From an uncultured Oscillospiraceae bacterium (lineage in GTDB: Bacteria; Bacillota; Clostridia; Oscillospirales; Ruminococcaceae), in the NCBI GenBank assembly GCA_949295465.1, contig CASFKY010000001.1, positions 1 to 64,000 of the forward strand: a stretch of DNA of 64,000 nucleotides. The letters run 5' to 3'. The notes under the pieces were generated by a model. The model saw only the letters and a list, made by a program, of their open reading frames with translations, made no database searches and was not told the DNA's origin. The position numbers and the translations under genes are program-made. Below, in pieces: positions 51,759 to 62,853 of this stretch (position 1 is the first letter of the stretch; each line of letters starts with the position of its first letter).

Positions 51759-51894
51759 GGCACCGCTCCTTTCCCGATGGTTCCATTATAGCAGGCCGGG
51801 GGATTTTCCTCCACAAAAGAGGGCCAAAAACCGCCCCCGAAAATCCGCAGACATCCGGGGACGCTGCCGTATGGCTTTTCTCGGGGACGCGCCG

Positions 51895-51925
51895 GTATTT
51901 TGGTCAACCTCCCCTCTCATATATT
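51895..51925 (+). promoter_or_regulatory. Possible sigma-E-type promoter of sigK
   Basis: -10-like CATATATT (51918-51925; sigma-E consensus CATACAnT, 6 of 8) with GTATTTT (51895-51901) 16 bp upstream as candidate -35. No sigma-A-type pair is evident. In Bacillus sigK is transcribed by sigma-E with SpoIIID. Spacing is one base longer than usual, so confidence is low. Confidence 0.35.
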
Positions 51926-51959
51926 ACCTTAATAGATGAGAAAAGGAGTGTTGCGCCCT

Positions 51960-52601
51960 ATGTTTACCGAATTTTTGTCCGCCCTGTTCAGCCATGTGCT
52001 TTATCTGGCCCTGCACCTGGAGGCCAGCAGTTTCCCCCATCCCCTCTCCCCTGCCCAGGAAAAACAGGCCTTTGAGGAATACCACCGCGGCAATGCCGAC
52101 GCCAAGGACCGGCTGATCCGGCACAATCTCCGGCTGGTGGCCCATATTGCCAAAAAGTACTACGCCTCCGCCCTGGACCAGGAGGACCTGGTCAGCATCG
52201 GCACCATCGGGCTGATCAAGGCGGTGGAGAGCTTTGACCCGGCCAAACAGGCCCGGTTCAGCACCTACGCCTCCCGGTGCATCGAAAATGAGATCAAGAT
52301 GCAGTTTCGCCGGGTGCGCAAAGAAGCCGCCACCGTCTCTCTTCAGGATGCGCTGGAGTCCACCCGGGAGGGCAGCGCCCTCACCGTGATGGATATTGTG
52401 CCGGACGGGTTTCGGATGGAGGACCAGCTGGATCTGCGGGAGGACTATGCCCGGCTGCGCCAGCTGCTGGGCTGTTTGGGAGAGCGGGAGCGGCGGGTGC
52501 TGATGCTGCGCTATGGGCTGAACGGCCATCCGGCCCTGACCCAGCAGGAGGTATCGGAGATTTTGGGTATCAGCCGCAGCTATGTATCCCGCCGCCGCTA
52601 A
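51960..52601 (+). CDS. sigK: Sporulation sigma factor sigma-K, 5' part (interrupted gene)
   Basis: 213-residue open frame encoding pro-sigma-K up to codon 211. A hydrophobic pro-sequence (about 1-20: MFTEFLSALFSHVLYLAL) precedes region 2 (HNLRLVAHIAKKY, LVSIGTIGLIKAVESFD, ASRCIENEI) and region 4 ending GISRSYVSR. Homologues continue with about 15-30 more residues starting [IL]EKKAL; here RR and a stop follow SYVS-R instead. The missing codons lie at 62797-62853. The frame breaks inside the shared core ATGTATCCCG. ATG 51960 has AAGGAG 11 bp upstream. No frameshift in the adjacent sequence restores the ending. Confidence 0.93.
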   Translation: MFTEFLSALFSHVLYLALHLEASSFPHPLSPAQEKQAFEEYHRGNADAKDRLIRHNLRLVAHIAKKYYASALDQEDLVSIGTIGLIKAVESFDPAKQARFSTYASRCIENEIKMQFRRVRKEAATVSLQDALESTREGSALTVMDIVPDGFRMEDQLDLREDYARLRQLLGCLGERERRVLMLRYGLNGHPALTQQEVSEILGISRSYVSRRR

Positions 52602-52602
52602 G
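52582..52602. repeat. Left attachment site of the sigK element
   Basis: Core ATGTATCCCG followed by the element-side arm; from the central GT (52584-52585) inward the arm reads ATCCCGCCGCCGCTAAG. Its reverse complement matches the right element arm at 14 of 17 positions, so the two arms form one dyad in the excised circle. The host side is the sigK coding sequence. Confidence 0.85.
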
Positions 52603-52604
52603 AG

Positions 52605-52643
52605 AAAAATCCCGGAGGGTAGCCCAGTCCGCCGGGATTTTTT
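52605..52643. terminator. Terminator at the left end of the element
   Basis: Stem AAAAATCCCGG / CCGGGATTTTTT right after the premature sigK stop. It would end the interrupted sigK transcript and, on the other strand, the alpha/beta hydrolase transcript. After excision it would be removed from the sigK locus. Confidence 0.85.
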
Positions 52644-53412
52644 ATCGGCCGGCGCTCGCTTCAGGCAGGGCCTGCTCTCCGGGCTGCCGGGCCAGAAACT
52701 CCTCAATGGCCTGGACCGTCTGGGCCTGCTGCTCCTGGGCCGAGATGGTGGCGGGCGCATCCCCTTTCTGGGGGCCGTAGTTGCCGAACTGGGCGTGATT
52801 GCCGCCCTGGATCTCCACCACATTTTCGGTGTAGTCGATCTTATCCTCCACGCTCTGGTTGAGGGAACCATAAACGGTGAGGGTGTTTTCGGGGGGATAG
52901 TCCCCATAGAGGTAGGCCCCCAGCAGGATGAGACCCTCCACCTGGTCCGGGTGGTCGGCGGCAAACCGGGAGGCCATGGCCCCGCCCATGGAGTGTCCGC
53001 CCAGGTACCAGTGCCGGATTTCGGGGAAGGCCTCCATCACCGCCCCCGCGGCATCTTCATCAAAGATGGCCATGCGGAAGGGCATCTTCACCAGGATGCA
53101 CTCCACGCCCAATCGTCGGATCTGGTCCAACAGAGGCAGATAGGCCTCTGCCTCCACCTTTGCCCCCGGGTAAAAGATGAGGGCCGTGTCGGCGGGCACC
53201 GAGGGAGAGAGGAGGACCCAGTCTTGCTCCACCTCAATGCCGTCCTCCCCTGCCAGCACCTCCAGGGCCACCCCGTCGGCGGGGTAGTAGTCAGAGAGAT
53301 ACCAAAAACAGGCGCCGGCCAGCCCTGCCAGGACCAGCAGCGCCGCCGCGCCGGCCAGAGCCAGCTTTTTGCGCAGGGAAAATGGGGGACGGGAAGCGCG
53401 TGGATGTTTCAA
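52642..53412 (-). CDS. Membrane-anchored alpha/beta hydrolase
   Basis: 256 residues. N-terminal signal anchor (LALAGAAALLVLAGLAGACFW), then an alpha/beta hydrolase with the nucleophile elbow GGHSMGGAMA, acidic residue near LTVYGSLNQSVED and His in GGNHAQFGNYGPQKGD. Resembles the Abhydrolase_5/DUF-type secreted esterases; substrate unknown. A TTG start at 53412 is proposed because AAAGGAGG lies 8 bp upstream; the ATG at 53445 precedes that site. First cargo gene at the left end of the sigK element. Confidence 0.85.
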   Translation of the reverse strand: MKHPRASRPPFSLRKKLALAGAAALLVLAGLAGACFWYLSDYYPADGVALEVLAGEDGIEVEQDWVLLSPSVPADTALIFYPGAKVEAEAYLPLLDQIRRLGVECILVKMPFRMAIFDEDAAGAVMEAFPEIRHWYLGGHSMGGAMASRFAADHPDQVEGLILLGAYLYGDYPPENTLTVYGSLNQSVEDKIDYTENVVEIQGGNHAQFGNYGPQKGDAPATISAQEQQAQTVQAIEEFLARQPGEQALPEASAGR

Positions 53413-53474
53413 GGCGGGATCCTCCTTTGTCTTTGAGCCGGGCATCCCCGGCCTTTGGGGTTTGATTCTCCCCC

Positions 53475-53503
53475 ATTATATCAGCCCTGGGGCGGCATAA
53501 CAA
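53475..53503 (-). promoter_or_regulatory. Promoter of the alpha/beta hydrolase gene
   Basis: Minus strand: -35 TTGTTA (53503-53498), 17-bp spacer, consensus -10 TATAAT (53480-53475). Confidence 0.65.
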
Positions 53504-53513
53504 CGCGAAGGCG

Positions 53514-53553
53514 CAAAAAATCAAGGCTCCCCGGGCTTTGCCGGGGAGCCTTG
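53514..53553 (-). terminator. hcp terminator
   Basis: Minus strand stem GGCTCCCCGG / CCGGGGAGCC followed by TTGATTTTTT, 36 bp past the hcp stop. Confidence 0.88.
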
Positions 53554-53588
53554 CCGAGGACAGGGTCAGGCGCAAAAGAGAAGCCGGG

Positions 53589-55220
53589 TCATGCCTCGCC
53601 CAAAAAGAGCTCCAGGTCCCCTTCCGCCGTGCCGATGCCGGCGATGCCGAACTGCTCCACCAGCACCCGGGCCACGTTGGGGCTGAGGAAGGCGGGCAGA
53701 GTGGGGCCCAGATGGATGTTCTTCACCCCCAGCGAGAGCAGCGCCAGCAGCACGATCACCGCTTTCTGCTCGTACCAGGCAATGTTGTAGACGATGGGCA
53801 GGTCGTTGATGTCCGCAAGGCCAAAGACTTCCTTCAGCTTGAGGGCGATCACCGCCAGCGAGTAGGAGTCGTTGCACTGGCCCGCGTCCAGCACCCGGGG
53901 GATACCCCCGATCTGCCCCAGGTCCAGCTTGTTATAGCGATACTTGGCGCAGCCGGCGGTGAGGATCACCGTATCCCCGGGCAGTTTGCGGGCAAATTGG
54001 GTGTAGTACTCCCGGCTTTTGGCCCGGCCGTCACAGCCGGCCATCACCACAAACTTGCGGATGGCGCCGCTCTTCACGGCTTCCACCACCTGGTCGGCCA
54101 GGGCCATCACCTGATGGTGGGCAAAGCCGCCCAGGATTTCCCCGGTCTCCAGCTGGGTGGGCGGCGGGCAGTGTTTGGCCTGCTGGATGAGGGGAGAAAA
54201 GTCCTTCTCCTCCCCCACCCCGCCGGGAATGTGCCGGCAGCCCGGGTAGCCCGCCGCCCCGGTGGTGTACAGCCGGCCCTGGTAGCTGGGCTTGGGGGGC
54301 ACGATGCAGTTGGTGGTCATCAGGATGGGGCCGTTGAAGGCCTCGAATTCCTCCCTCTGCTTCCACCAGGCGTTGCCGTAGTTGCCCACAAAGTGGGGAT
54401 ACTTCTTGAAGGCCGGGTAATAGTGGGCGGGCAGCATCTCCGAATGGGTGTACACGTCCACCCCGGTGTCCCGGGTCTGCTCCAGCAGCTGCTCCAGATC
54501 CCGCAGGTCGTGTCCGGACACCAGGATGCCGGGCCGGCTGCCCACCCCCAGCTTCACCCGGGTCATCTCGGGCTGGCCGTAGGTGCCGGTGTTAGCCTCG
54601 TCCAGAAGGGCCATCCCCCGCACGCCGTACCGGCCCACCTCCAGGGTCAGGTCCACCAGCTCCTGGACCGAAAGGCTGTCGTCCAGGGTGGCGGCCAGGG
54701 CCTTTTGCAGGAAAGCGTCCAGCTCCGGGTCCTCCCGCAGCAGGGCGTTGGCGTGCTTGGTGTAGGCGGACAAGCCCTTGAGCCCGTAGGTGATCAGCTC
54801 CCGCAGGGAGCGGATATCCTCATTTTGGGTGGCCAGCACCCCCACCCGGGCCGCCTTGGCCGGGTATTCGGCCTCGCTGCCCTCCCACAGGGCCGCCTCG
54901 GGCAGTCCCTCCCGGCTGTGCAGCAGGGCCAGCAGCTCCCTCTTGGTCTGGAGGGTCTCGCTCACCCGGGCCCGGATGGCCTCCTTGTCAAAATTGGCGT
55001 TGGTGATGGTGACAAACAGGTTCAGGGTGATGAGGTGATTGGTCTGCCGGGGTACCTGGCCGCCCTCGGACCGCAGGCGGGTGGTCACCGCCGCAAGGCC
55101 CCGGGTCACATAGACCAGCAGATCCTGCAAAGCCGCCACCTCCGGCGTCTTGCCGCAGACCCCCGCCTGGGTGCAGCCGGCGGTTTCCTGACACTGATAG
55201 CAGAACATCTTGTTTTCCAT
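53589..55220 (-). CDS. hcp: Hybrid cluster protein (hydroxylamine/NO reductase)
   Basis: 543-residue Fe-S/hybrid-cluster enzyme of anaerobes protecting against nitric oxide and hydroxylamine. The N-terminal [4Fe-4S] site reads [20 protein letters not shown], that is CxxC-x5-C-x5-C; most family members I know have about 7-8 residues before the third Cys, so this loop is shortened. Hybrid-cluster ligands lie in [30 protein letters not shown] and CNDSYS. Divergent to a Crp/Fnr regulator with a palindromic site between, the pattern of HcpR control. Confidence 0.93.
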
Positions 55221-55264
55221 AAAAATCCTCCTGGATGGGTTTGAAAATCCTCTCGGTATGAGTC

Positions 55265-55294
55265 TTGACTTTCTGAGGCAGAGTATACTATATT
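55265..55294 (+). promoter_or_regulatory. Promoter of the Crp/Fnr regulator gene
   Basis: -35 TTGACT (55265-55270), 18-bp spacer, -10 TATATT (55289-55294); the palindromic operator begins 5 bp downstream, covering the start point. Confidence 0.55.
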
Positions 55295-55298
55295 GATC

Positions 55299-55324
55299 AC
55301 AACAATACTGTTGTATTTACAACA
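55299..55324. promoter_or_regulatory. Palindromic Crp/Fnr-type operator between hcp and its regulator
   Basis: Perfect dyad ACAACA-ATAC-TGTTGT (55299-55314), which shares its right half with a second dyad TGTTGT-ATTT-ACAACA (55309-55324). The 6-4-6 geometry is that of Crp/Fnr-family sites. It lies between divergent hcp and the Crp/Fnr gene, so both could be controlled from it. Confidence 0.75.
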
Positions 55325-55338
55325 ATTGAGGATTTTTT

Positions 55339-56010
55339 ATGGATTTTGTGTTTTTGAGCAAGACGGCTCTGTTCCGGGGCACTGCCCCGGGAGAGGCGGA
55401 GGAGATGCTGGGCTGCCTGGGTGCCCTGACCCGGGAGTTCGGCCGGGGAGAACAGGTCCTGCGCCGGGGAGACCCGGTGCGGGCGTTGGGGATGGTGCTG
55501 ACCGGCAGCGTATTGATCCAGAGCGACGACGTGTGGGGCAACACCACCGTGCTGGACAGCGTGGGGCCGGGACAGATCTTTGCCGAGACCTACGCCTGCG
55601 CCCCCGGCGAACCCCTGATGGTGGACGTGGTGGCGGCAGAGCCGGCCCAGGTGCTGTTTTTGAACACCGAGCGGGTGCTGACGGTCTGCTCCCACGCCTG
55701 CGGCCACCACAGCAAGCTGATCCGCAACCTGCTCTTTATCTCGGCCCAGAAAAACCTGACCCTCTCCCGCAAGATTTTTTACACCTCGGCCCGGTCCATC
55801 CGGGGGCGGCTGCTCAGCTATCTTTCGGACCAGGCCGTCCGCCGGGGCAGCAACCGTTTTCTCATCCCCTTCAATCGCCAGCAGCTGGCCGACTACCTGA
55901 ATGTGGACCGAAGCGCCCTCTCCAATGAGCTGAGCAAGATGCAGCGGGAGGGCCTTTTGCGCACCCGGCGCAATGAATTTGAACTGTACCACCTGCCCCG
56001 GGAATCGTAA
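55339..56010 (+). CDS. Crp/Fnr family transcriptional regulator (HcpR-like)
   Basis: 223 residues: cyclic-nucleotide-binding-type sensor domain (about 10-120, with GPGQIFAETYAC), long dimer helix, and a Crp-type helix-turn-helix near the end (NRQQLADYLNVDRSALSNEL). No N-terminal four-Cys cluster of Fnr type is present. Its position next to hcp and the palindrome between them suggest it senses NO or redox state and activates hcp, as HcpR does; heme binding is not visible from sequence. Confidence 0.88.
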   Translation: MDFVFLSKTALFRGTAPGEAEEMLGCLGALTREFGRGEQVLRRGDPVRALGMVLTGSVLIQSDDVWGNTTVLDSVGPGQIFAETYACAPGEPLMVDVVAAEPAQVLFLNTERVLTVCSHACGHHSKLIRNLLFISAQKNLTLSRKIFYTSARSIRGRLLSYLSDQAVRRGSNRFLIPFNRQQLADYLNVDRSALSNELSKMQREGLLRTRRNEFELYHLPRES

Positions 56011-56027
56011 CCCTGCATATACGCCAG

Positions 56028-56080
56028 CAGGCCGGCCGCAGCCCCTTTTGAGGGACCGCGGCCGGCCTGTGCGCGTTTTT
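56028..56080 (+). terminator. Terminator after the Crp/Fnr gene
   Basis: Perfect 12-bp stem CAGGCCGGCCGC / GCGGCCGGCCTG followed by TGCGCGTTTTT; it touches the end of the convergent LysR gene. Confidence 0.8.
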
Positions 56081-56961
56081 CAGTTTTGGGGCTGAGCCAG
56101 TTCCTCCAGCAATGCCTCCCGGTATCGGTCCGCCGCCGGGGAAAATCTCTGGTGCCTCTTCCAGACCAGGTAGCTTTCGGCCTGGCAGGGCGGATCCAGC
56201 GGGAGAAAGCGAAGGTCGGTACCGGCGGTGTTGAGGATCTTGTCCAGACAGACCGCGCAGCCCATGCCGGAGCGCACCATCAGAGAACCGTTGAACACCA
56301 GGGTGTAGGTGCCCGCCACCTGCACCCTGGCGGCTTTTTGGCCGAACCAGTCGCTGAGCAGCCCGTTTTTCAGAGCCTGGCGGGAGAGAATCAGAGGCTG
56401 GCCCAGCAGCTGTTCCAGCTCCACCCTCTCCTGGCCGGCCAGGGGGTGATCCTGCCGCACCAAAAGGCCCCAGGTGTCCCGGTGGGGCAGGCTCACCGCC
56501 TGGTAACGGGTCAGGTCCACCGGGGCAAAGACCAGCCCGAAATCAATGAGCCCCTTTTCCAGCCGGTCACAGATCTCCATGCTGTCGCCGCTGTAGAGAT
56601 GAAAGCATACCCCCGGGGCATGCAGGCGCTCGGCCGCCCCGGTGAGCAGCTGTACCCCCACCGTCTCTCCCGCGCCCAGGTAGATGTCGCCGGAGAGGTT
56701 TTTGTCCGCCTGGCTCACCTCCCGCTCGGTCTTGTCCACCAGGTCCAGGATCTCCTCGGCCCGCCGCTGAAGCAAAAGCCCCTCGCCGGTGAGGCTCACG
56801 CTGCGGCTGCCCCGCACCAGAAGGGTCTGGCCCAACTCCTCCTCCAGTTCCCGGATCTGGCGGGAGAGCGTGGGCTGGGTGATGTGCAGCCGCTCGGCTG
56901 CCCCGGTGACGCTGCCCTCCCGAGCCACCGCCAGAAAGTATTTCAGCAGGCGCAGTTCCAT
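56080..56961 (-). CDS. LysR family transcriptional regulator
   Basis: 293 residues. N-terminal winged helix MELRLLKYFLAVAREGSVTG with AAERLHITQPTLSRQIRELE, then a periplasmic-binding-like effector domain (about 90-290). ATG 56961 gives the canonical LysR start; longer reading adds 25 unrelated residues. Divergent to the alcohol dehydrogenase-reductase pair, with two inverted repeats in the shared intergenic region, so it most likely controls them. Effector unknown. Confidence 0.92.
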   Translation of the reverse strand: MELRLLKYFLAVAREGSVTGAAERLHITQPTLSRQIRELEEELGQTLLVRGSRSVSLTGEGLLLQRRAEEILDLVDKTEREVSQADKNLSGDIYLGAGETVGVQLLTGAAERLHAPGVCFHLYSGDSMEICDRLEKGLIDFGLVFAPVDLTRYQAVSLPHRDTWGLLVRQDHPLAGQERVELEQLLGQPLILSRQALKNGLLSDWFGQKAARVQVAGTYTLVFNGSLMVRSGMGCAVCLDKILNTAGTDLRFLPLDPPCQAESYLVWKRHQRFSPAADRYREALLEELAQPQN

Positions 56962-57030
56962 TGGGATTCCCCCTTTCGGCCTTCGTATAGCTGTATTATA
57001 CAAAATGGCCTGCCCCCTGCGCAAGAAGTG

Positions 57031-57083
57031 TTTCATGCCCTGTGAGCATGAAAAGAAATGTGAGAGAAGTATTTGTCATTTCT
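57031..57083. promoter_or_regulatory. Inverted repeats in the LysR/alcohol dehydrogenase intergenic region
   Basis: Two perfect dyads: TTTCATGC-N7-GCATGAAA (57031-57053) and AGAAATG-N16-CATTTCT (57054-57083). The second overlaps the -35 of the alcohol dehydrogenase promoter. They are likely LysR-type binding sites for the divergent regulator. Confidence 0.6.
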
Positions 57084-57101
57084 TTGCGGCGGGGGTACAC
57101 T
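57073..57101 (+). promoter_or_regulatory. Promoter of the alcohol dehydrogenase-reductase pair
   Basis: -35 TTGTCA (57073-57078), 17-bp spacer, -10 TACACT (57096-57101), 60 bp before the start codon. Confidence 0.6.
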
Positions 57102-57160
57102 GGAAGGCGGGGCGGGCAGCAGCTGCCGCCCTCATCACAGGCAAGAACGGAGGAACACCC

Positions 57161-58342
57161 ATGCTTGGAAACTTTACCTATCACAACCCCACCCGGCTCC
57201 ATTTCGGGGAACAGGCCCTGGAAGAGCTGGCCGGAGAGCTGAAAGAATACGGCAGCCGGGTGCTGCTGGTGTACGGCGGCGGCTCCATCAAGCGGTACGG
57301 CCTGTACGACCAGGTGGTGGAAGTCCTGAAAAAAAGCGGCAAGGAGATCTTTGAGGTGCCGGACGTGATGCCCAACCCCACGGTGGACAAACTGTACGAG
57401 GGCTGCGCCGCGGCCAAAGCGGCGGATGTGGACCTGATCCTGGCAGTGGGCGGCGGCTCGGTGTGCGACTACGCCAAGGCAGTGTCGGTCTCGGCCTGGT
57501 GCGAGGAGGACCCCTGGGAAAAATACTACCTGCGCATGGAGGAGCCCGACAATCAGATCATCCCGGTGGGCTGCATCCTCACCATGGTGGGCACCGGCTC
57601 GGAGATGAACGGCGGCTCGGTGATCACCAACCCCACCCAGAAGCGGAAGATCGGCCATGTGTTCGGCAGCAATGTGATGCCCCGGTTCACCATCCTGAAC
57701 CCGGCCCTCACCTTCACGGTGCCCCTGCGCCAGATGAGCGCCGGCATCTATGACGCCTTCAACCACATCTGCGAGCAGTATTTTTCCGGCCAGGACGACA
57801 ACACCACCGACTACCTGGCCGAGGGGCTGATGTGCTCGCTGATCGTCAGCTCCCGCCGGGCCCTGAAGGACCCCAAGGACTACGAGGCCCGCAGCAACAT
57901 CATGTGGGCGGCCACCTGGGCCCTGAACACCCTGCTGGCCATGGGCAAATCCACCGACTGGGAGGTGCACATGATCGGCCAGGCGGTGGGCGCCTACACC
58001 GACGCCACCCACGGCATGACCCTCTCGGCGGTGTCCCTGCCCTATTATCGGAAGATCCTGCCCGACGGGCTGCCCAAATTCGCCCGCTTTGCGGCAAACG
58101 TGTGGGGCATCGACGCCCGGGGCAAGAGCCAGGAGGAACTGGCCCTGGCCGGGCTGGACGCCATGAAGGGCTGGATGCAGGAACTGGGCGTGGCCCTGGA
58201 CCTGCGGCAGCTGGGGGTGAAAGAGGAGATGCTGGAGGGCATCGCAGACGGCACCTTCCTGCTCACCGGGGGCTACCGCACCCTCACCCGGCAGGATGTG
58301 ATCGAGATTTTGCGGGAGAGCTTGGAGGGAGAAAACGTATGA
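57161..58342 (+). CDS. Iron-containing alcohol dehydrogenase (YqhD/BdhA-like)
   Basis: 393 residues. N-terminal Rossmann-like domain with YGGGSIKRYGLYD and VGGGSVCDYAK, then helical metal domain: DAFNHICEQYF, and HMIGQAVGAYTDATHGMTLS with the His ligands. This is the NADPH-type aldehyde reductase/butanol dehydrogenase branch (YqhD, BdhA), which reduces short and toxic aldehydes. ATG 57161 has CGGAGGAAC upstream. The stop overlaps the flavoprotein start (ATGA). Divergent LysR regulator likely controls it. Confidence 0.93.
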   Translation: MLGNFTYHNPTRLHFGEQALEELAGELKEYGSRVLLVYGGGSIKRYGLYDQVVEVLKKSGKEIFEVPDVMPNPTVDKLYEGCAAAKAADVDLILAVGGGSVCDYAKAVSVSAWCEEDPWEKYYLRMEEPDNQIIPVGCILTMVGTGSEMNGGSVITNPTQKRKIGHVFGSNVMPRFTILNPALTFTVPLRQMSAGIYDAFNHICEQYFSGQDDNTTDYLAEGLMCSLIVSSRRALKDPKDYEARSNIMWAATWALNTLLAMGKSTDWEVHMIGQAVGAYTDATHGMTLSAVSLPYYRKILPDGLPKFARFAANVWGIDARGKSQEELALAGLDAMKGWMQELGVALDLRQLGVKEEMLEGIADGTFLLTGGYRTLTRQDVIEILRESLEGENV

Positions 58343-58881
58343 GCAAGCAGGTTTTGATCCTCTCCACCAGTCTGCGCCGGGACAGCAACTCGGACCTGCT
58401 GGCGGAGGAATTTGCAAGGGGCGCCCGGGAGACCGGCCACCAGGTTGAAAAGATCAGCCTGGCAGGCAAGAACATCCAGTTCTGCCAGGGCTGCCTGAGC
58501 TGCCAGACCAGCGGCCGGTGCTTTTTGCGGGATGACGCCGACGCCATCGTGCAGGAAAAGATGCTTCCCGCCCAGGTGCTGGTGTTCGCCACCCCCATCT
58601 ACTACTATGGGATGAGCGGCCAGATGAAGACTTTGCTGGACCGGGCCAACCCCCTCTACGCGGGCAATCCCCGGTTCCGGGAGGTATACCTGTTGGCCAC
58701 CGCCGCTGAGGACGGGCGCGGGGTGTGGCAGCGGGCCGCCGAGGGCTTGCAGGGCTGGATCGACTGCTTTGAGGGGGTCCGGCTGGCCGGGGTGGTCTTT
58801 GGGGGCGGCGTCACCGGCCCGGGCGAGATCCGGGGCAGCGAGGCCCTGAAAAAGGCCTATGAGGCAGGCCGGTCCCTGTAA
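58339..58881 (+). CDS. NADPH-dependent FMN reductase-like flavodoxin-fold protein
   Basis: 180 residues. Starts KQVLILSTSLRRDSNSDLLAEEF, the FMN phosphate loop of the NADPH-dependent FMN reductase/iron-sulfur flavoprotein family, with FCQGCLSCQTSGRC (CxxCxxC-type cysteine group) and the flavin-contact segment ATPIYYYGMSGQMKTLLDR. Cysteine spacing resembles iron-sulfur flavoproteins but is also common in simple reductases. Coupled to the alcohol dehydrogenase gene by a 4-bp overlap. Confidence 0.88.
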   Translation: MSKQVLILSTSLRRDSNSDLLAEEFARGARETGHQVEKISLAGKNIQFCQGCLSCQTSGRCFLRDDADAIVQEKMLPAQVLVFATPIYYYGMSGQMKTLLDRANPLYAGNPRFREVYLLATAAEDGRGVWQRAAEGLQGWIDCFEGVRLAGVVFGGGVTGPGEIRGSEALKKAYEAGRSL

Positions 58882-58920
58882 AAAGGGAGCTTTGGGTCTG
58901 CCCCTCTCCTGCCCGGCCGG

Positions 58921-59847
58921 TCAATCTCCAAACCGAAGCTGGGTCTGCCGGCAGGAGGGCATGGGTCGGAGGGTGATCCGATCCTCCGGGCCGGGCCAGC
59001 CGGTGAGCAGCGGGGAGACAGGGTCGTGGCGGGCGGCCGCCCGGGCCGACCGGGTGGCATAGCAGTACCGGCAGCCGCCGGGGCAGGTGTCGTACTCCCC
59101 GATGTCCACGCTCTCGGCACAGCCGCAGGCGGGGCGCTGGCGGGGGTCCTTCTTCGCCTGTAGCGGGCAGCCCATCAGCTGCCCCAGGAGCTCCGGGTCC
59201 ACACAGCGGGCGGGGGCGATGCCGAGGGCGCTGAAATCCTCCTCTTCGGCGCAGGCGCAGAGCTGCAATCCATATTGTTTCGCGATGCGGGCCAGTTTCC
59301 CCGCCAGCCCCAGCCGCTGTGCCGGCAAGGGCGGCCGGGGAGCCAGGCCCGCCATTTTTGTGGCCGTGTGGGGGTACTCGTCCAGAAAGCTGAAGGTGCA
59401 CCGCTCGGTATAAGGGGCCAGCAGTTTGGCCAGCCGCTCAAAATAACAGAGATGGTATTCCGGGGTGTAGCGATCGGTAAAAAAGATGGGGTCGTACCGC
59501 CAGAGCACCCGCCGGGGCCCGATGGCCCGGGAAAGCCGCTGAAAGGCCGGCACCAGCACCTTCCCCTTGGGAGGCAGGGCCCGCTCCACATCCCGGCCGT
59601 AGGGGGTGAGGGTGAACTGAAAATAATAGGGATATCCCCTCAGTTCCTCCAGCCTCTCCAGCATGGGCAGGGGGTTCTTGGTCCAAAAGACGATGCCCTC
59701 CACCGAGGCCGGGTCCAGGCTGACCCGGCTGAGCTGATGGGGATTGCGGGGATTGCGCACCAGCACATAGCCCTCCCGCAGCCGGCCAAAGAACCAGGGA
59801 GCGTAATATTGGGGGATGTCCGTTCTTCTGCTGACGCTGAGAAGCAT
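58921..59847 (-). CDS. DUF1848 family protein (possible Fe-S enzyme)
   Basis: 308 residues. Starts LSVSRRTDIPQYYAPWFFGRL, the DUF1848 signature, with FWTKNPLPML next. The C-terminal half carries CACAEEEDF, then CGCAESVDIGEYDTCPGGCRYCYA, a cysteine pattern resembling a radical-SAM-like [4Fe-4S] site placed at the C-terminus as in spore photoproduct lyase relatives. Function unknown. It follows the EamA gene by 22 bp on the same strand. Confidence 0.88.
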   Translation of the reverse strand: MLLSVSRRTDIPQYYAPWFFGRLREGYVLVRNPRNPHQLSRVSLDPASVEGIVFWTKNPLPMLERLEELRGYPYYFQFTLTPYGRDVERALPPKGKVLVPAFQRLSRAIGPRRVLWRYDPIFFTDRYTPEYHLCYFERLAKLLAPYTERCTFSFLDEYPHTATKMAGLAPRPPLPAQRLGLAGKLARIAKQYGLQLCACAEEEDFSALGIAPARCVDPELLGQLMGCPLQAKKDPRQRPACGCAESVDIGEYDTCPGGCRYCYATRSARAAARHDPVSPLLTGWPGPEDRITLRPMPSCRQTQLRFGD

Positions 59848-59869
59848 GAGGATCTCCTTTGGGGTCTGT

Positions 59870-60736
59870 TCAGCCGAACACTGCCATGATCAGGGTGCCC
59901 GCCGCCATGAGGGCCAGGCCCAGGGCGGCCCGTCGGCTGACGGATTCCTTGAGAAAGAGGGCCGAAAAGGCCACGGTGACCAGGATACTCATCTTGTCAA
60001 TGGGCACCACCACGCTGACGACGCCGCCCTGGATTGCCCCGTAGTAGCACAGCCAGGAGGCCCCGGTGGCAAGGCCGGAGAGAAGGATAAAGCATCCCTC
60101 CCGCCGGTCCAGCCCGGCCAGCAGCTTTTGCTTGCCCCGGGCAAACACCACCAGCCAGGCCATCCCCAGCACCACCACCGTGCGCAGAGCAGTGCCCAGG
60201 TTGGACTCCACCCCGGAGATGCCGATCTTGGCAAGGATGGAGGTGAGGGCCGCAAAGAGGGCCGAACCTGCCGCGTAGACCAGCCATCCTCTGCCCCCGG
60301 CAGTCCGGGCGGAAGGCTGTTTTTCCACCATCAGAAAGATGCCCGCCGCCAGCAGGGCGGTGCCCGCCAGCTTGAGGGGCAGGTGCCCCGTCTCGCCAAA
60401 GCAGAGGATGGCAATGAGCACGGTGAGGACGGTGCTGGATTTGTCGATGGGGGCCACCTTGTTCACATCCCCCAGGGAGAGGGCCTTAAAATAACACAGC
60501 CAGGAGGCCCCTGTGGCAAAGCCGGAGAGGGCCAGGAAAAGCAGGGACCGGCCCGAAATCTGCCCCAGGGTGTTCTCGGAGCCCACCACAAAGACCATCA
60601 GCCAGGAAAAGATCAGCACCACCCCGGTGCGCAGGGCGGTGGCCAGATCAGAATCGGTTTTGCGGATGCCGCACTTGGCCAGAACCGCCGTCACCCCCGC
60701 AAAAAATGCAGAGCCTGCCGCCAGCAGAACCCACAT
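59870..60736 (-). CDS. EamA/DMT family transporter
   Basis: 288 residues, ten membrane helices in two EamA repeats, each with the conserved SGFATGASWLCYFKAL / SGLATGASWLCYYGAI segments and following PIDK motif (VAPIDKSS, VVPIDKMS). Drug/metabolite exporter superfamily; substrate unknown. A promoter lies about 110 bp upstream (60844-60873), with a strong hairpin in the leader. Confidence 0.92.
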   Translation of the reverse strand: MWVLLAAGSAFFAGVTAVLAKCGIRKTDSDLATALRTGVVLIFSWLMVFVVGSENTLGQISGRSLLFLALSGFATGASWLCYFKALSLGDVNKVAPIDKSSTVLTVLIAILCFGETGHLPLKLAGTALLAAGIFLMVEKQPSARTAGGRGWLVYAAGSALFAALTSILAKIGISGVESNLGTALRTVVVLGMAWLVVFARGKQKLLAGLDRREGCFILLSGLATGASWLCYYGAIQGGVVSVVVPIDKMSILVTVAFSALFLKESVSRRAALGLALMAAGTLIMAVFG

Positions 60737-60776
60737 TCTTGTTCGCCTCCCATGGGGCAGCCGCCCCTGTCAAAAG

Positions 60777-60812
60777 GCCTCCCGCCAAAGGGCGGGAGGC
60801 TTCTGTTTTTTG
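60777..60812. terminator. Hairpin in the EamA leader (terminator or attenuator)
   Basis: Perfect 10-bp stem GCCTCCCGCC / GGCGGGAGGC with TTCTGTTTTTT on the plus strand and CTTTTG on the minus strand. On the minus strand it lies between the EamA promoter and start codon, so it could attenuate EamA; on the plus strand it shields the recombinase unit from readthrough. Confidence 0.7.
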
Positions 60813-60843
60813 TATAAGGGGCCCGCCTGACGGGCCCGGCCCT

Positions 60844-60873
60844 ATTATACCACCCCCGTCACCCCGGCTCAAC
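60844..60873 (-). promoter_or_regulatory. Promoter of the EamA-DUF1848 unit
   Basis: Minus strand: -35 TTGAGC (60873-60868), 18-bp spacer, consensus -10 TATAAT (60849-60844). Confidence 0.6.
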
Positions 60874-60984
60874 TCCCGCCCGGGGGACAGGCAAGGCGGC
60901 CTCTCAAGCCGCATATCCTGTACCAAACCCCCGAAAGAGCCGGATCACCGGCAGAGAACCTCATCACAGAAAGAAGGCCCCGCC

Positions 60985-61113
60985 ATGAAAAAAGCACTCA
61001 CCATCCGCTGTCGGTACGGCCCACAGGAGGGCCGCAGCCTGGTGCTGCGCTCCTTCGGGCTGTTTTTGCACCGGGAGCTGGGCTTTGTCCCCTGCCCCGG
61101 CCGGCAGCCGTGA
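60985..61113 (+). CDS. Small basic ORF overlapping the recombinase start
   Basis: 42 codons, starting MKKALTIRCRYGPQEGR and ending FVPCPGRQP, net charge about +6. AAGAAGG lies 8 bp upstream. Its TGA overlaps the recombinase GTG (GTGA), so the two are translationally linked if it is real. No family is recognised. A recombination directionality factor is one possibility, since skin elements can carry one near the recombinase, but nothing in the sequence proves it; it may merely be a leader peptide. A weak CATATCCT at 60912-60919 resembles a sigma-E -10 box without a good -35. Confidence 0.45.
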   Translation: MKKALTIRCRYGPQEGRSLVLRSFGLFLHRELGFVPCPGRQP

Positions 61114-62672
61114 GCGGGCCGGAGGCAGGACCCCTGGTGGGGCTGTACATCCGCCTCTCCAAGGAGGACGAGAGCGAGGGCCCCTCCCAGAGCGTACAGA
61201 ACCAGGAGGCCCTGCTGCGGGAATTTGTCCGCCGTCAGGGGTGGTCGGTGCTGCAGGTATATGTGGACGACGGATGGAGCGGCACCAACTTCCAGCGGCC
61301 CGCCTTTCGGCGGATGCTGGCGGACATTGAGGCGGGCCGGATCGATCTTGTGCTCACCAAGGACCTCTCCCGCCTGGGACGGGACTACATCCTCACCGGC
61401 CACTATCTGGAGCGGTATTTCCCGGAGCACCGGGTGCGGTATATCTCCCTTTTGGACGGCATCGACACCGGGGTGGAGAGCGCCGCCAACGAGATCACCC
61501 CCTTCCGGGCGCTTTTAAACGACCTGTACGCCAAGGACATCTCCAAAAAGATCAAGAGCGTCAAGCGGGACAAACAGCGCCGGGGCCAGTTCATCGGGGG
61601 CAAGCCGGTCTACGGCTACAAGATGCACCCCACCGAAAAAAATCGGATCGTGCCGGACGAGGGGGCGGCCCCCACGGTGCGGCGGATCTTCGCGCTGGCC
61701 CTGGCGGGGCAGAGCTGCCGGCAGATCGCCCAACTGCTCAACGGGGAGGGGGTGCCCAGCCCGGCGGTGTATGCCGGCCTGCCCGCCGCCCGCAGCGGCC
61801 GGTGTGCCTGCCGGTGGAGCAGCGAGCGGATCTCGGAGATGCTGCGCAACGAGACCTACCTGGGCCGGATGGTACAGGGGCGCAGTGTGAAGGTGAGCTA
61901 TAAATCCAAAAAATGCCTGCGCCAGCCCCCGGAGCGGTGGGTGGTGGTGCCGGGCACCCACCCGCCCCTGGTGGATGCGGAAGTCTTTGATCGGGTGGGG
62001 CAACTGCTGGCAGGCCGGCGGCATACCCGCAGCCGGACCCATGACTTTTTGCTGAAGGGGCTGATCTTCTGCCACCGGTGCGGCCGACCTCTGGGGGTGC
62101 TCTGCCGCAAAAACGCCGCCGGCGGGGAGGTGCTGTACCTGGTCTGCCGGGCCTGCCAGGCGCAGGGGCAGGGCGGGCTCTGTTTTCGGGAGGACGCGGT
62201 GACCCGGGCGGTGCAGGACCAGATCCTTCGGCTCTGCCGCCAGCTGGTGCGCCCGGAGGAATTGGCGGAGCAGGCCCGGCTGGCGCTGCGGCAGGCCCGA
62301 CTGCCGGCTGCCAAGGAGGAATTGCCCGACCTTGCCCGGGAAATAGAGCGGCTGAACGGCCAGCTGGAGCAGATTTACGCGGACCGGCTGAGCGGGCTGC
62401 TGGCCCCCGAGGACTCAGAGCGGCTTTACCGGGAAACCCGCCGCCGGCGGGACGCCCTGGCCCGTCAGGCCGAGGCATTGCGCCGGCAGGGCGCCACCCG
62501 CACCGAGGCGGAGGCGGACCGGCTGGCAGGCCGGTTCTGGGATGAACTGGCCCAAAACCGGGAGCTGCTCAGCGCCCTTTTGGAGCGGGTCGAGCTGGAC
62601 CGGCAGGGGGAACTGACCCTGTTTTTCCGGGCAGGGCCCCCTGCCTGCCCGGAGCCGAAAGAGGAAGTCTAG
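61110..62672 (+). CDS. spoIVCA: Large serine recombinase of the sigK element (SpoIVCA-like)
   Basis: 520 residues. Resolvase domain (about 8-150) with catalytic Ser17 in YIRLSKEDE, NQEALLREFV, DDGWSGTNFQRPAF and LTKDLSRLGRDYI; recombinase domain (about 170-280) with GGKPVYGYK and VRRIFALALAG; zinc ribbon with CHRCGRPLG and CRACQAQGQGGLC; C-terminal coiled coil (about 400-500). GTG start overlaps the upstream small ORF. Position next to the right att site and sigK 3' codons indicates it excises the element in the mother cell. A perfect terminator hairpin follows. Confidence 0.93.
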   Translation: MSGPEAGPLVGLYIRLSKEDESEGPSQSVQNQEALLREFVRRQGWSVLQVYVDDGWSGTNFQRPAFRRMLADIEAGRIDLVLTKDLSRLGRDYILTGHYLERYFPEHRVRYISLLDGIDTGVESAANEITPFRALLNDLYAKDISKKIKSVKRDKQRRGQFIGGKPVYGYKMHPTEKNRIVPDEGAAPTVRRIFALALAGQSCRQIAQLLNGEGVPSPAVYAGLPAARSGRCACRWSSERISEMLRNETYLGRMVQGRSVKVSYKSKKCLRQPPERWVVVPGTHPPLVDAEVFDRVGQLLAGRRHTRSRTHDFLLKGLIFCHRCGRPLGVLCRKNAAGGEVLYLVCRACQAQGQGGLCFREDAVTRAVQDQILRLCRQLVRPEELAEQARLALRQARLPAAKEELPDLAREIERLNGQLEQIYADRLSGLLAPEDSERLYRETRRRRDALARQAEALRRQGATRTEAEADRLAGRFWDELAQNRELLSALLERVELDRQGELTLFFRAGPPACPEPKEEV

Positions 62673-62720
62673 CGCCGGCAGGGCGCCCCAAAGGGCGCAG
62701 CAGGGCTCCATCGACAGAGC

Positions 62721-62763
62721 AAAAGGGCGTGGCCGCTGAAAAATACAGCGGCCACGCCCTTTT
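62721..62763. terminator. Recombinase terminator
   Basis: Perfect 18-bp stem AAAAGGGCGTGGCCGCTG / CAGCGGCCACGCCCTTTT with a 7-nt loop, 48 bp past the recombinase stop and inside the right end of the element. Confidence 0.92.
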
Positions 62764-62779
62764 GACGGCCTGTTTTTAC

Positions 62780-62804
62780 CTTAAGCGCGGCGGGATGTAT
62801 CCCG
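62780..62804. repeat. Right attachment site of the sigK element
   Basis: Element-side arm CTTAAGCGCGGCGGGAT (62780-62796), central GT (62797-62798), then ATCCCG shared with the left site. Joined to the left element arm it gives a 36-bp near-palindrome, the likely attP. To the right lies the sigK 3' coding segment. Confidence 0.85.
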
Positions 62805-62853
62805 GCTGGAGAAAAAAGCACTGTGGCGGCTGCGCAAGGCCTTTGAACGCTGA
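62797..62853 (+). other. sigK: sigK 3' segment (codons for the missing sigma-K C-terminus)
   Basis: Nineteen codons reading VSRLEKKALWRLRKAFER then TGA. VSR repeats the end of the 5' part; the rest is the classic end of sigma-K region 4.2, where relatives have SRSYVSRIEKRAL. The frame fits exactly: joining at the core makes CGG (Arg211) from C-G of the core and G62805. There is no start codon or ribosome binding site here, so it can only be expressed after rearrangement. Confidence 0.92.

What the first reader, a model, noticed from the sequence alone, without database searches (positions are those of the whole stretch)
51960..62853. sigK is split by a 10.2-kb recombinase-bearing element whose excision restores the gene exactly
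Seen: the 5' part of sigK ends after ...SYVSR with RR and a stop; 10.2 kb downstream the codons VSRLEKKALWRLRKAFER and a stop appear with no start of their own. Both sites share ATGTATCCCG. Joining the flanks gives an in-frame 226-residue sigma-K with the family-typical end. A large serine recombinase lies beside the right site. Known: skin elements in Bacillus subtilis and Clostridioides difficile interrupt sigK and are excised in the mother cell by SpoIVCA-type recombinases. Inference: this is such an element, probably not described in this organism.
Basis: partly seen in the sequence, partly recalled or inferred. Interest (0 to 1): 0.95.

Follow-up and report, generated by a model that had tools for sequence, protein, structure and literature searches.

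The report
Compact cargo island splitting sigK
In this bacterium the late spore-forming gene sigK is cut in two by 10.2 kb of apparently non-viral accessory DNA that carries its own recombinase and is predicted to be cut out during spore formation to rebuild the gene; relatives of that recombinase lie at the same codon of sigK in dozens of other bacteria.

Summary
Confirmed, and wider than reported. sigK (51960-52601) and an orphan 18-codon tail (62797-62853) flank 10,213 bp; joining at the shared ATGTATCCCG gives an in-frame 226-residue SigK. A sister species has the gene uninterrupted (88% identity), so this is a clean insertion. No phage gene was recognised: the cargo is an Hcp/Crp pair, a LysR regulator, an alcohol dehydrogenase, a transporter and others, plus a large serine recombinase (LSR). 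Of the 80 best LSR relatives, fetched without regard to context, 74 lie in sigK at this codon; the 67 adjacent sigK tails found by motif are open. New here: (1) a family of compact (4.0-10.3 kb) sigK islands with variable metabolic or defence-like cargo; (2) a micro-protein gene just upstream of the LSR in 70 of 70 testable loci, of no known family, the best candidate for the recombination directionality factor; (3) a conserved mother-cell-type promoter motif before it; (4) palindromic rejoined ends around a central GT; (5) in Oscillibacter sp. ER4, sigK apparently in three pieces. Excision itself, its timing and the micro-protein's role are inferred, not shown. It works like skin elements; new variant of a known kind.

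The parts
51894..51925 (+). predicted sigK promoter, GGTATTTT-N16-CATATATT, sigma-E type
   Evidence: sequence; conserved in sister G001; compare ATA-N16-CATATATA given for C. difficile spoIIID in PMC3789822 (passage)
51960..52601 (+). 5' part of sigK, 213 codons, ends SYVSRRR and a stop supplied by the element's left end; cuts the region 4 helix-turn-helix
52582..52591 (+). left attachment core ATGTATCCCG; predicted exchange at GT 52584-52585
52608..52643 (+). terminator-like hairpin (AATCCCGG...CCGGGATT, then T run) just inside the left end
   Evidence: read from the sequence; not listed on +, whose loop limit it exceeds
52642..53445 (-). cargo: alpha/beta hydrolase
   Evidence: PF12695 4e-43
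53589..55220 (-). cargo: hybrid cluster protein / hydroxylamine reductase (Hcp)
   Evidence: NF003658 8.3e-250; PF03063
55339..56010 (+). cargo: Crp/Fnr-type regulator divergent from hcp
   Evidence: PF00027, PF13545
56080..57036 (-). cargo: LysR-type regulator
   Evidence: PF03466, PF00126
57158..58342 (+). cargo: iron-containing alcohol dehydrogenase
   Evidence: PF00465 1.9e-43
58339..58881 (+). cargo: NADPH-dependent FMN reductase / flavodoxin-like protein
   Evidence: PF03358 1.3e-19
58921..59847 (-). cargo: DUF1848 protein
   Evidence: PF08902 3.4e-98
59870..60736 (-). cargo: EamA-family transporter
   Evidence: PF00892 1.9e-29
60885..60919 (+). predicted mother-cell promoter of the recombinase operon: GGACAGGC-N19-CATATCCT
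   Evidence: motif conserved in relatives
60985..61113 (+). micro-ORF, 42 aa, overlaps the LSR start (GTGA); candidate recombination directionality factor
61110..62672 (+). large serine recombinase, 520 aa (Resolvase, Recombinase, Zn ribbon domains)
   Evidence: best solved match TnpX chain 2mhc
62721..62763 (+). terminator-like inverted repeat AAAAGGGCGTGGCCGCTG / CAGCGGCCACGCCCTTTT after the LSR
   Evidence: read from the sequence
62795..62804 (+). right attachment core ATGTATCCCG; predicted exchange at GT 62797-62798
62797..62853 (+). 3' part of sigK (VSRLEKKALWRLRKAFER, stop), no start of its own

Best explanation
A 10,213-bp island without recognised phage genes is inserted in the codons for the DNA-binding helix-turn-helix of sigK region 4, and its large serine recombinase, likely helped by a 42-residue partner protein encoded just before it, is predicted to cut it out as a circle in the sporulating mother cell, rebuilding sigK exactly. 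Shown by sequence: the split, the insertion relative to a sister species, the shared core, the in-frame rejoining, the recombinase, the micro-ORF and a promoter motif conserved in relatives. Inferred: crossover at the central GT (62797/52584); sigma-E (perhaps with SpoIIID) transcription of the micro-ORF/recombinase operon; the micro-protein as the directionality factor that lets the recombinase join attL to attR; the spore inheriting the integrated form. The truncated protein lacks the end of the region 4 recognition helix, so it is predicted to be inactive before excision. The island would thereby persist and carry cargo (here a likely nitrosative-stress pair, Hcp with a Crp/Fnr-type regulator) in a sporulation gene without costing the host its spores.
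For: Empty site in sister species. Of the best 80 of 395 LSR relatives, fetched by LSR alone, 67 have the sigK tail within 360 bp of the LSR, 2 have it 1.2-2.3 kb off, and 5 have the LSR reversed on the side of the sigK 5' part: 74 of 80. The 67 near tails are open for 17-31 codons, unlike what dead fragments would be; they were found by a protein motif, and the other 13 loci were looked at one by one. In-frame rejoining for the window and 14 of the 15 other parsed elements (L090 was mis-registered by the script, L075 not parsed). Rejoined element ends form an inverted repeat around GT: mean alignment score 14.7 against 5.4 for the rejoined host site and 5.2 for shuffled arms (99.9th percentile 10), window 15. 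Micro-ORF: a profile of 14 finds it in the other 56 of 56 loci with 240 bases upstream (E<=0.01; 55 at 1e-3; none in shuffled DNA). CATANNNT 15-85 bases before it in 58 of 68 (shuffles: mean 5.7, maximum 13; random real stretches of the same loci: mean 2.6 of 70); exact GGACARGC-N17-21-CATANNNT in 16 of 68 (shuffle mean 0.0), window included. The LSRs form one clade apart from 3 non-sigK LSRs, SH-aLRT 99 (quick tree, very long outgroup branches). SpoIVA and SigE are in the draft.
Against: No junction reads; no attP copy in the own draft at up to 1 mismatch nor in viral contigs. SpoIIID was not found in the own draft (84% complete), only in the sister, just under the model's cut-off. SigK scores lie below NCBI's curated cut-offs. 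The promoter motif is a consensus match; the SpoIIID consensus is recalled, not fetched. 10 of 68 loci lack CATANNNT and 52 of 68 lack the strict pair. The micro-protein matches no known directionality factor; its model is a single helix (pLDDT 83, pTM 0.46). One LSR relative with an intact attP-like site lies among ordinary chromosomal genes with sigK intact (L059/L163), and 4 of 27 LSR-bearing genomes in the sample of Pseudoflavonifractor capillosus' family show no sigK piece beside the LSR, one of them cut by a contig end.
Confidence: 0.76

Rival explanations
1. Mobile island with stress- or density-triggered excision: the element leaves the chromosome in a small part of the growing population, and only those cells can finish sporulation; there is no developmental control.
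For: Recent mobility is suggested by near-identical LSRs with unrelated 3' flanks (L088/L092, 98.1% DNA identity, no flank alignment in 1,200 bp).
Against: What is conserved before the micro-ORF/LSR operon is a CATANNNT motif of sigma-E type (58 of 68).
Confidence: 0.13
2. Dead insertion: the host has lost sporulation, sigK is a pseudogene and the element is stuck.
For: No reads; the draft lacks a SpoIIID match; the 5' part alone is truncated.
Against: Orphan tails open in the 67 neighbouring cases found; rejoining in frame across species; SpoIVA and SigE present; LSR and ends intact.
Confidence: 0.07
3. A different role for the micro-ORF: it is not the directionality factor but a leader or translational coupler for the LSR, which acts alone or with another factor. 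(This rival concerns one step and is not exclusive with the others.)
For: It overlaps the LSR start in the window and a vaguely similar short ORF precedes one non-sigK LSR (L042); no known-family match.
Against: Protein-level conservation in diverse sequences (pattern V-x-C-x-Y ... S-F-x-x-F/Y-L) with a separate start and ribosome site, and a distance to the LSR that varies.
Confidence: 0.3
4. Assembly or binning chimera.
For: Draft assembly of 86 contigs.
Against: Exact att logic, and the same architecture in isolate genomes such as Pseudoflavonifractor capillosus An827 (L049) and Butyricicoccus pullicaecorum ET57 (L062); a 98% identical LSR on another public contig of 286,652 bases, whose context I could not see.
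Confidence: 0.02

Closest known systems
skin element of Bacillus subtilis (SpoIVCA)
   Same: splits sigK; own serine recombinase; excision rejoins the gene in the mother cell (PMC10745906, PMC5025042, passages read)
   Different: 48 kb and prophage-like (same passages); the insertion site in B. subtilis was not mapped onto this gene here; no such micro-ORF known to me (recalled)
skinCd of Clostridioides difficile (CD1231 + CD1234)
   Same: splits sigK; LSR plus a small directionality factor under sigma-E and SpoIIID (PMC5025042, passages read)
   Different: 14.6 kb, prophage-like (PMC10745906, passage); factor of 72 aa expressed apart from a constitutive LSR (PMC5025042); here a 42-aa candidate overlaps the LSR in one predicted mother-cell operon. 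Same codon or not: not tested
island IV in sigK of Bacillus cereus biovar anthracis
   Same: sigK island without phage proteins, with restriction-modification genes, excised (PMC10745906, passages read)
   Different: 22 kb; recombinase beside the 5' fragment, here beside the 3' fragment; recombinases and sites not compared here
gin element in gerE of B. cereus ATCC 10987 (GirC + GirX)
   Same: non-prophage intervening element with LSR and directionality factor, excised during sporulation (PMC5595907, passages read)
   Different: other target gene, gerE

Membership tests
sigK-intervening (skin-type) element | inserted inside the sigK coding sequence | tested here: met
sigK-intervening (skin-type) element | precise removal restores an in-frame SigK | tested here: met
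   in silico only; intact sister gene
sigK-intervening (skin-type) element | encodes its own large serine recombinase | tested here: met
   PF00239, PF07508, PF13408
sigK-intervening (skin-type) element | excised in the mother cell during sporulation | not testable with these tools
   no reads or expression data
sigK-intervening (skin-type) element | excision genes under sigma-E / SpoIIID control | tested here: inconclusive
   conserved promoter-like motif, no expression data; SpoIIID not found in own draft
directionality factor of the CD1234, GirX or SprB type | sequence relationship to a known factor | tested here: inconclusive
   no credible Pfam, NCBIfam or PDB match; not compared with CD1234, GirX or SprB one by one
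prophage | phage structural or replication genes in the element | tested here: not met
   the 8 cargo proteins of the window match cellular families; the PHROGs tally over 87 cargo proteins of 17 elements shows integrases, an invertase, methyltransferases, transposases, a radical SAM protein and unknowns among the 25 of 54 families displayed; the other 29 were not displayed

The most novel reading that the evidence does not exclude
sigK codon ~208 is a dedicated home for a separate class of mobile islands in Oscillospirales-type bacteria: 4-10 kb, non-phage, with interchangeable metabolic or anti-phage cargo, moved by one LSR clade whose direction is set by a new micro-protein family (about 37-60 aa) under a mother-cell promoter, so that the island is kept in the spore line and discarded from every terminal mother cell; some hosts would need two excisions to build SigK.
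Probability: 0.55. Interest if true: 0.78.

Novelty: new variant of a known kind. Interest (0 to 1): 0.64.

Why it matters
In the papers I saw, programmed excision from sigK is described for a few Bacillus, Clostridium-type and Alicyclobacillus hosts, mostly with prophage-like DNA. This family would make it a recurring trait of Oscillospirales-type spore-formers, would explain truncated sigK genes there, and offers a cultured model (Flavonifractor plautii ATCC 29863 carries the LSR beside a sigK tail, L083). The micro-protein, if it is the directionality factor, would be small even for its kind (CD1234 has 72 residues, PMC5025042; SprB 58, recalled) and useful for controlling serine integrases.

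Tried and rejected
Circle evidence: attP-like junctions in L059 and L124 and, read by eye, L112 first looked like excised circles. L059's whole contig (L163) shows the LSR and junction among uvrA-, uvrB-, radC- and pyrE-like genes (named by eye) with sigK intact on another contig, so it is not a circle. L112 (Anaerotruncus colihominis JM4-15) is best read as tandem elements beside a truncated sigK; L124 likewise, less surely. attP patterns found nothing in viral contigs or the own draft.

Phage or plasmid origin of the LSR: every record matched is under 60% identity, 79 phage and 83 plasmid records; a viral-contig scan gave 13 loci, none with a sigK piece by my motif search, though L137 ends at a family right end.

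Family census by HMM: one search's listing was truncated, so I did not use it to count split genes. In one search, 69 of 100 genomes (own included) have a hit at E<=1e-50; the best hit reaches residue 220 or beyond in all of these but the window and G032 (some may be SigE). G032, of the window's own family, ends at residue 212 near a contig edge with this family's left end, so the window is not the only split case there although no LSR was found in it.

AlphaFold of the micro-protein: one helix, too little to identify a fold; no fold search was run. The careful tree did not finish; the quick tree is cited.

Literature: searches list no paper whose title or abstract start describes sigK elements in Oscillospiraceae-type bacteria; only open-licence PMC papers were searched, and I read passages of six papers (PMC12946183, PMC5025042, PMC13141910, PMC5595907, PMC3789822, PMC10745906) and of PMC5553647, none whole.
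Full report
Observation. The window holds sigK codons 1-213 ending in SYVSRRR and a stop (51960-52601) and, 10.2 kb on, an orphan VSRLEKKALWRLRKAFER with a stop (62797-62853). Joined, they give 226 residues in frame, best matched by SigK models, though below NCBI's curated cut-offs; the sister's intact protein behaves the same.

Insertion shown by a relative. The sister genome G001 (same genus, 99% complete) has one uninterrupted sigK, 88% identical. DNA alignment runs from 51892 to 52593 and resumes at 62795, at adjacent places in G001, through to the window's end in pfkA. The draft of the window's own genome shows no other intact sigK; its nearest sigma factor is SigE.

Contents. Eight cargo genes belong to ordinary cellular families: alpha/beta hydrolase, Hcp with a divergent Crp/Fnr-type regulator, LysR, iron alcohol dehydrogenase, FMN reductase, DUF1848, EamA. 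Sister G001 has no Hcp match at 1e-50, nor do 4 of 5 other relatives tried, so the cargo came with the island or was lost there. At the right end lie a 42-codon ORF and, overlapping it by GTGA, a 520-residue LSR.

A family at one codon. A scan of genome contigs with the LSR alone confirmed 395 relatives and returned the best 80 loci, 52-75% identical, labelled Oscillospiraceae, Butyricicoccaceae, Lachnospiraceae, Christensenellaceae or less exactly. 67 have a sigK tail within 360 bp of the LSR and 2 more (L098, L122) 1.2-2.3 kb off; 5 carry the LSR reversed on the side of the sigK 5' part (L061, L076, L080 and L109 within about 100 bp, L106 1.7 kb away): 74 of 80. The remaining 6 are L091, L114 and L074 (contig ends), L059 (elsewhere in the chromosome), L112 and L124 (tandem junctions, each with a truncated sigK 5' part). 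The 67 near tails are open, 17-31 codons. In 200 genomes of the family of P. capillosus, 27 have the LSR at 1e-140, one match each; 21 show the tail by motif, one a variant tail and one the reversed form, 23 of 27; 4 show none, one cut by a contig end. In a sample of the window's own family it is 1 of 148 at 1e-130, though G032 there carries the left end near a contig edge.

Attachment sites. For 16 elements parsed (window and 15 others; a 17th, L075, was not parsed) the lengths are 4,026-10,333 bp. The rejoined element ends form an inverted repeat around GT (mean score 14.7; host site 5.4; shuffled 5.2), and 15 of 16 rejoin to GISRSYVSR[IL]EK. The left ends supply an in-frame stop and often a hairpin (by eye).

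Micro-ORF and promoter. A short ORF with the pattern V-x-C-x-Y...S-F-x-x-[FY]-[LI] precedes the LSR. By motif it is in 68 of 70 loci, window included (a stricter first script found 56 of 71); a profile of 14 finds it in the other 56 of 56, with no hit in shuffled DNA, and the motif detector gives 67 of 70 against 0.07 in shuffles and 1.3 in random stretches of the same loci. Of 37 members, single ones give weak Pfam or NCBIfam hits (best E 0.0047) and none a shared family; 182 proteins match its profile, the few named ones as hypothetical. Before it stands CATANNNT in 58 of 68 (shuffles 5.7), with exact GGACARGC at a near-fixed spacing in 16 of 68. The sigK promoter has a -10 of the same type, CATATATT, in window and sister. 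The reading as sigma-E with a SpoIIID-like box rests on C. difficile passages and on recall for the B. subtilis SpoIIID consensus.

Cargo across the family. In 87 proteins of 17 elements, Pfam tallies show integrases, Fic, AAA_14/DUF4143, shikimate-pathway, Cys/Met, POR and other enzymes; PADLOC matches include SoFic, Pycsar cyclase and methyltransferase models. These are model matches, not shown defence systems, and only the first 25 families of each tally are displayed.

Mobility. Of 6 LSR pairs at >=93% DNA identity, 5 have 3' flanks that do not align and the sixth aligns over 51 bp; all but one pair also differ in the sigK tail. The LSR tree mixes host families, with caution for metagenome bins.

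sigK in more pieces. Oscillibacter sp. ER4 has residues 9-115, then 15 kb with an unrelated LSR, then 108-211 ending at this family's left end; tail and family LSR lie on another contig. Two further genomes (G192, G194) have 5' pieces ending near 115-120.

Judgement. It works like a skin element and meets the testable defining features; phage content is not met, which island IV and gin show is not required (PMC10745906, PMC5595907; passages read). Excision, timing and the micro-protein's role are inferred.

Noticed in passing
L157:987-16960 and L096:10001-11700 (Oscillibacter sp. ER4): sigK apparently in three pieces, split by two unrelated elements at residues ~115 and ~210; similar first-piece ends in Pseudoflavonifractor sp. 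524-17 (L159) and O. valericigenes An907 (L158).
   Followed up: partly
L160/L161 with L112 (Anaerotruncus colihominis JM4-15): Truncated sigK followed by an element whose right end is fused to another left end: likely tandem elements at one site; L124 similar, and L117 has two right ends.
   Followed up: partly
L163:14260-15968: Family LSR with an intact attP-like site between ordinary chromosomal genes, sigK intact elsewhere: an element or remnant outside sigK.
   Followed up: partly
L061, L076, L080, L106, L109: Elements with the LSR in reverse orientation to sigK; how the LSR accepts both orientations is unexplained.
   Followed up: no
L193 (G032, same family as the window): sigK interrupted at the same codon, with a TAG at the junction with this family's left end, near a contig edge.
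   Followed up: partly
L042 upstream of the LSR (sister G001, non-sigK LSR): A short ORF with a loosely similar EEGPRLEELL segment precedes this LSR, so micro-ORFs may be a wider LSR feature.
   Followed up: no
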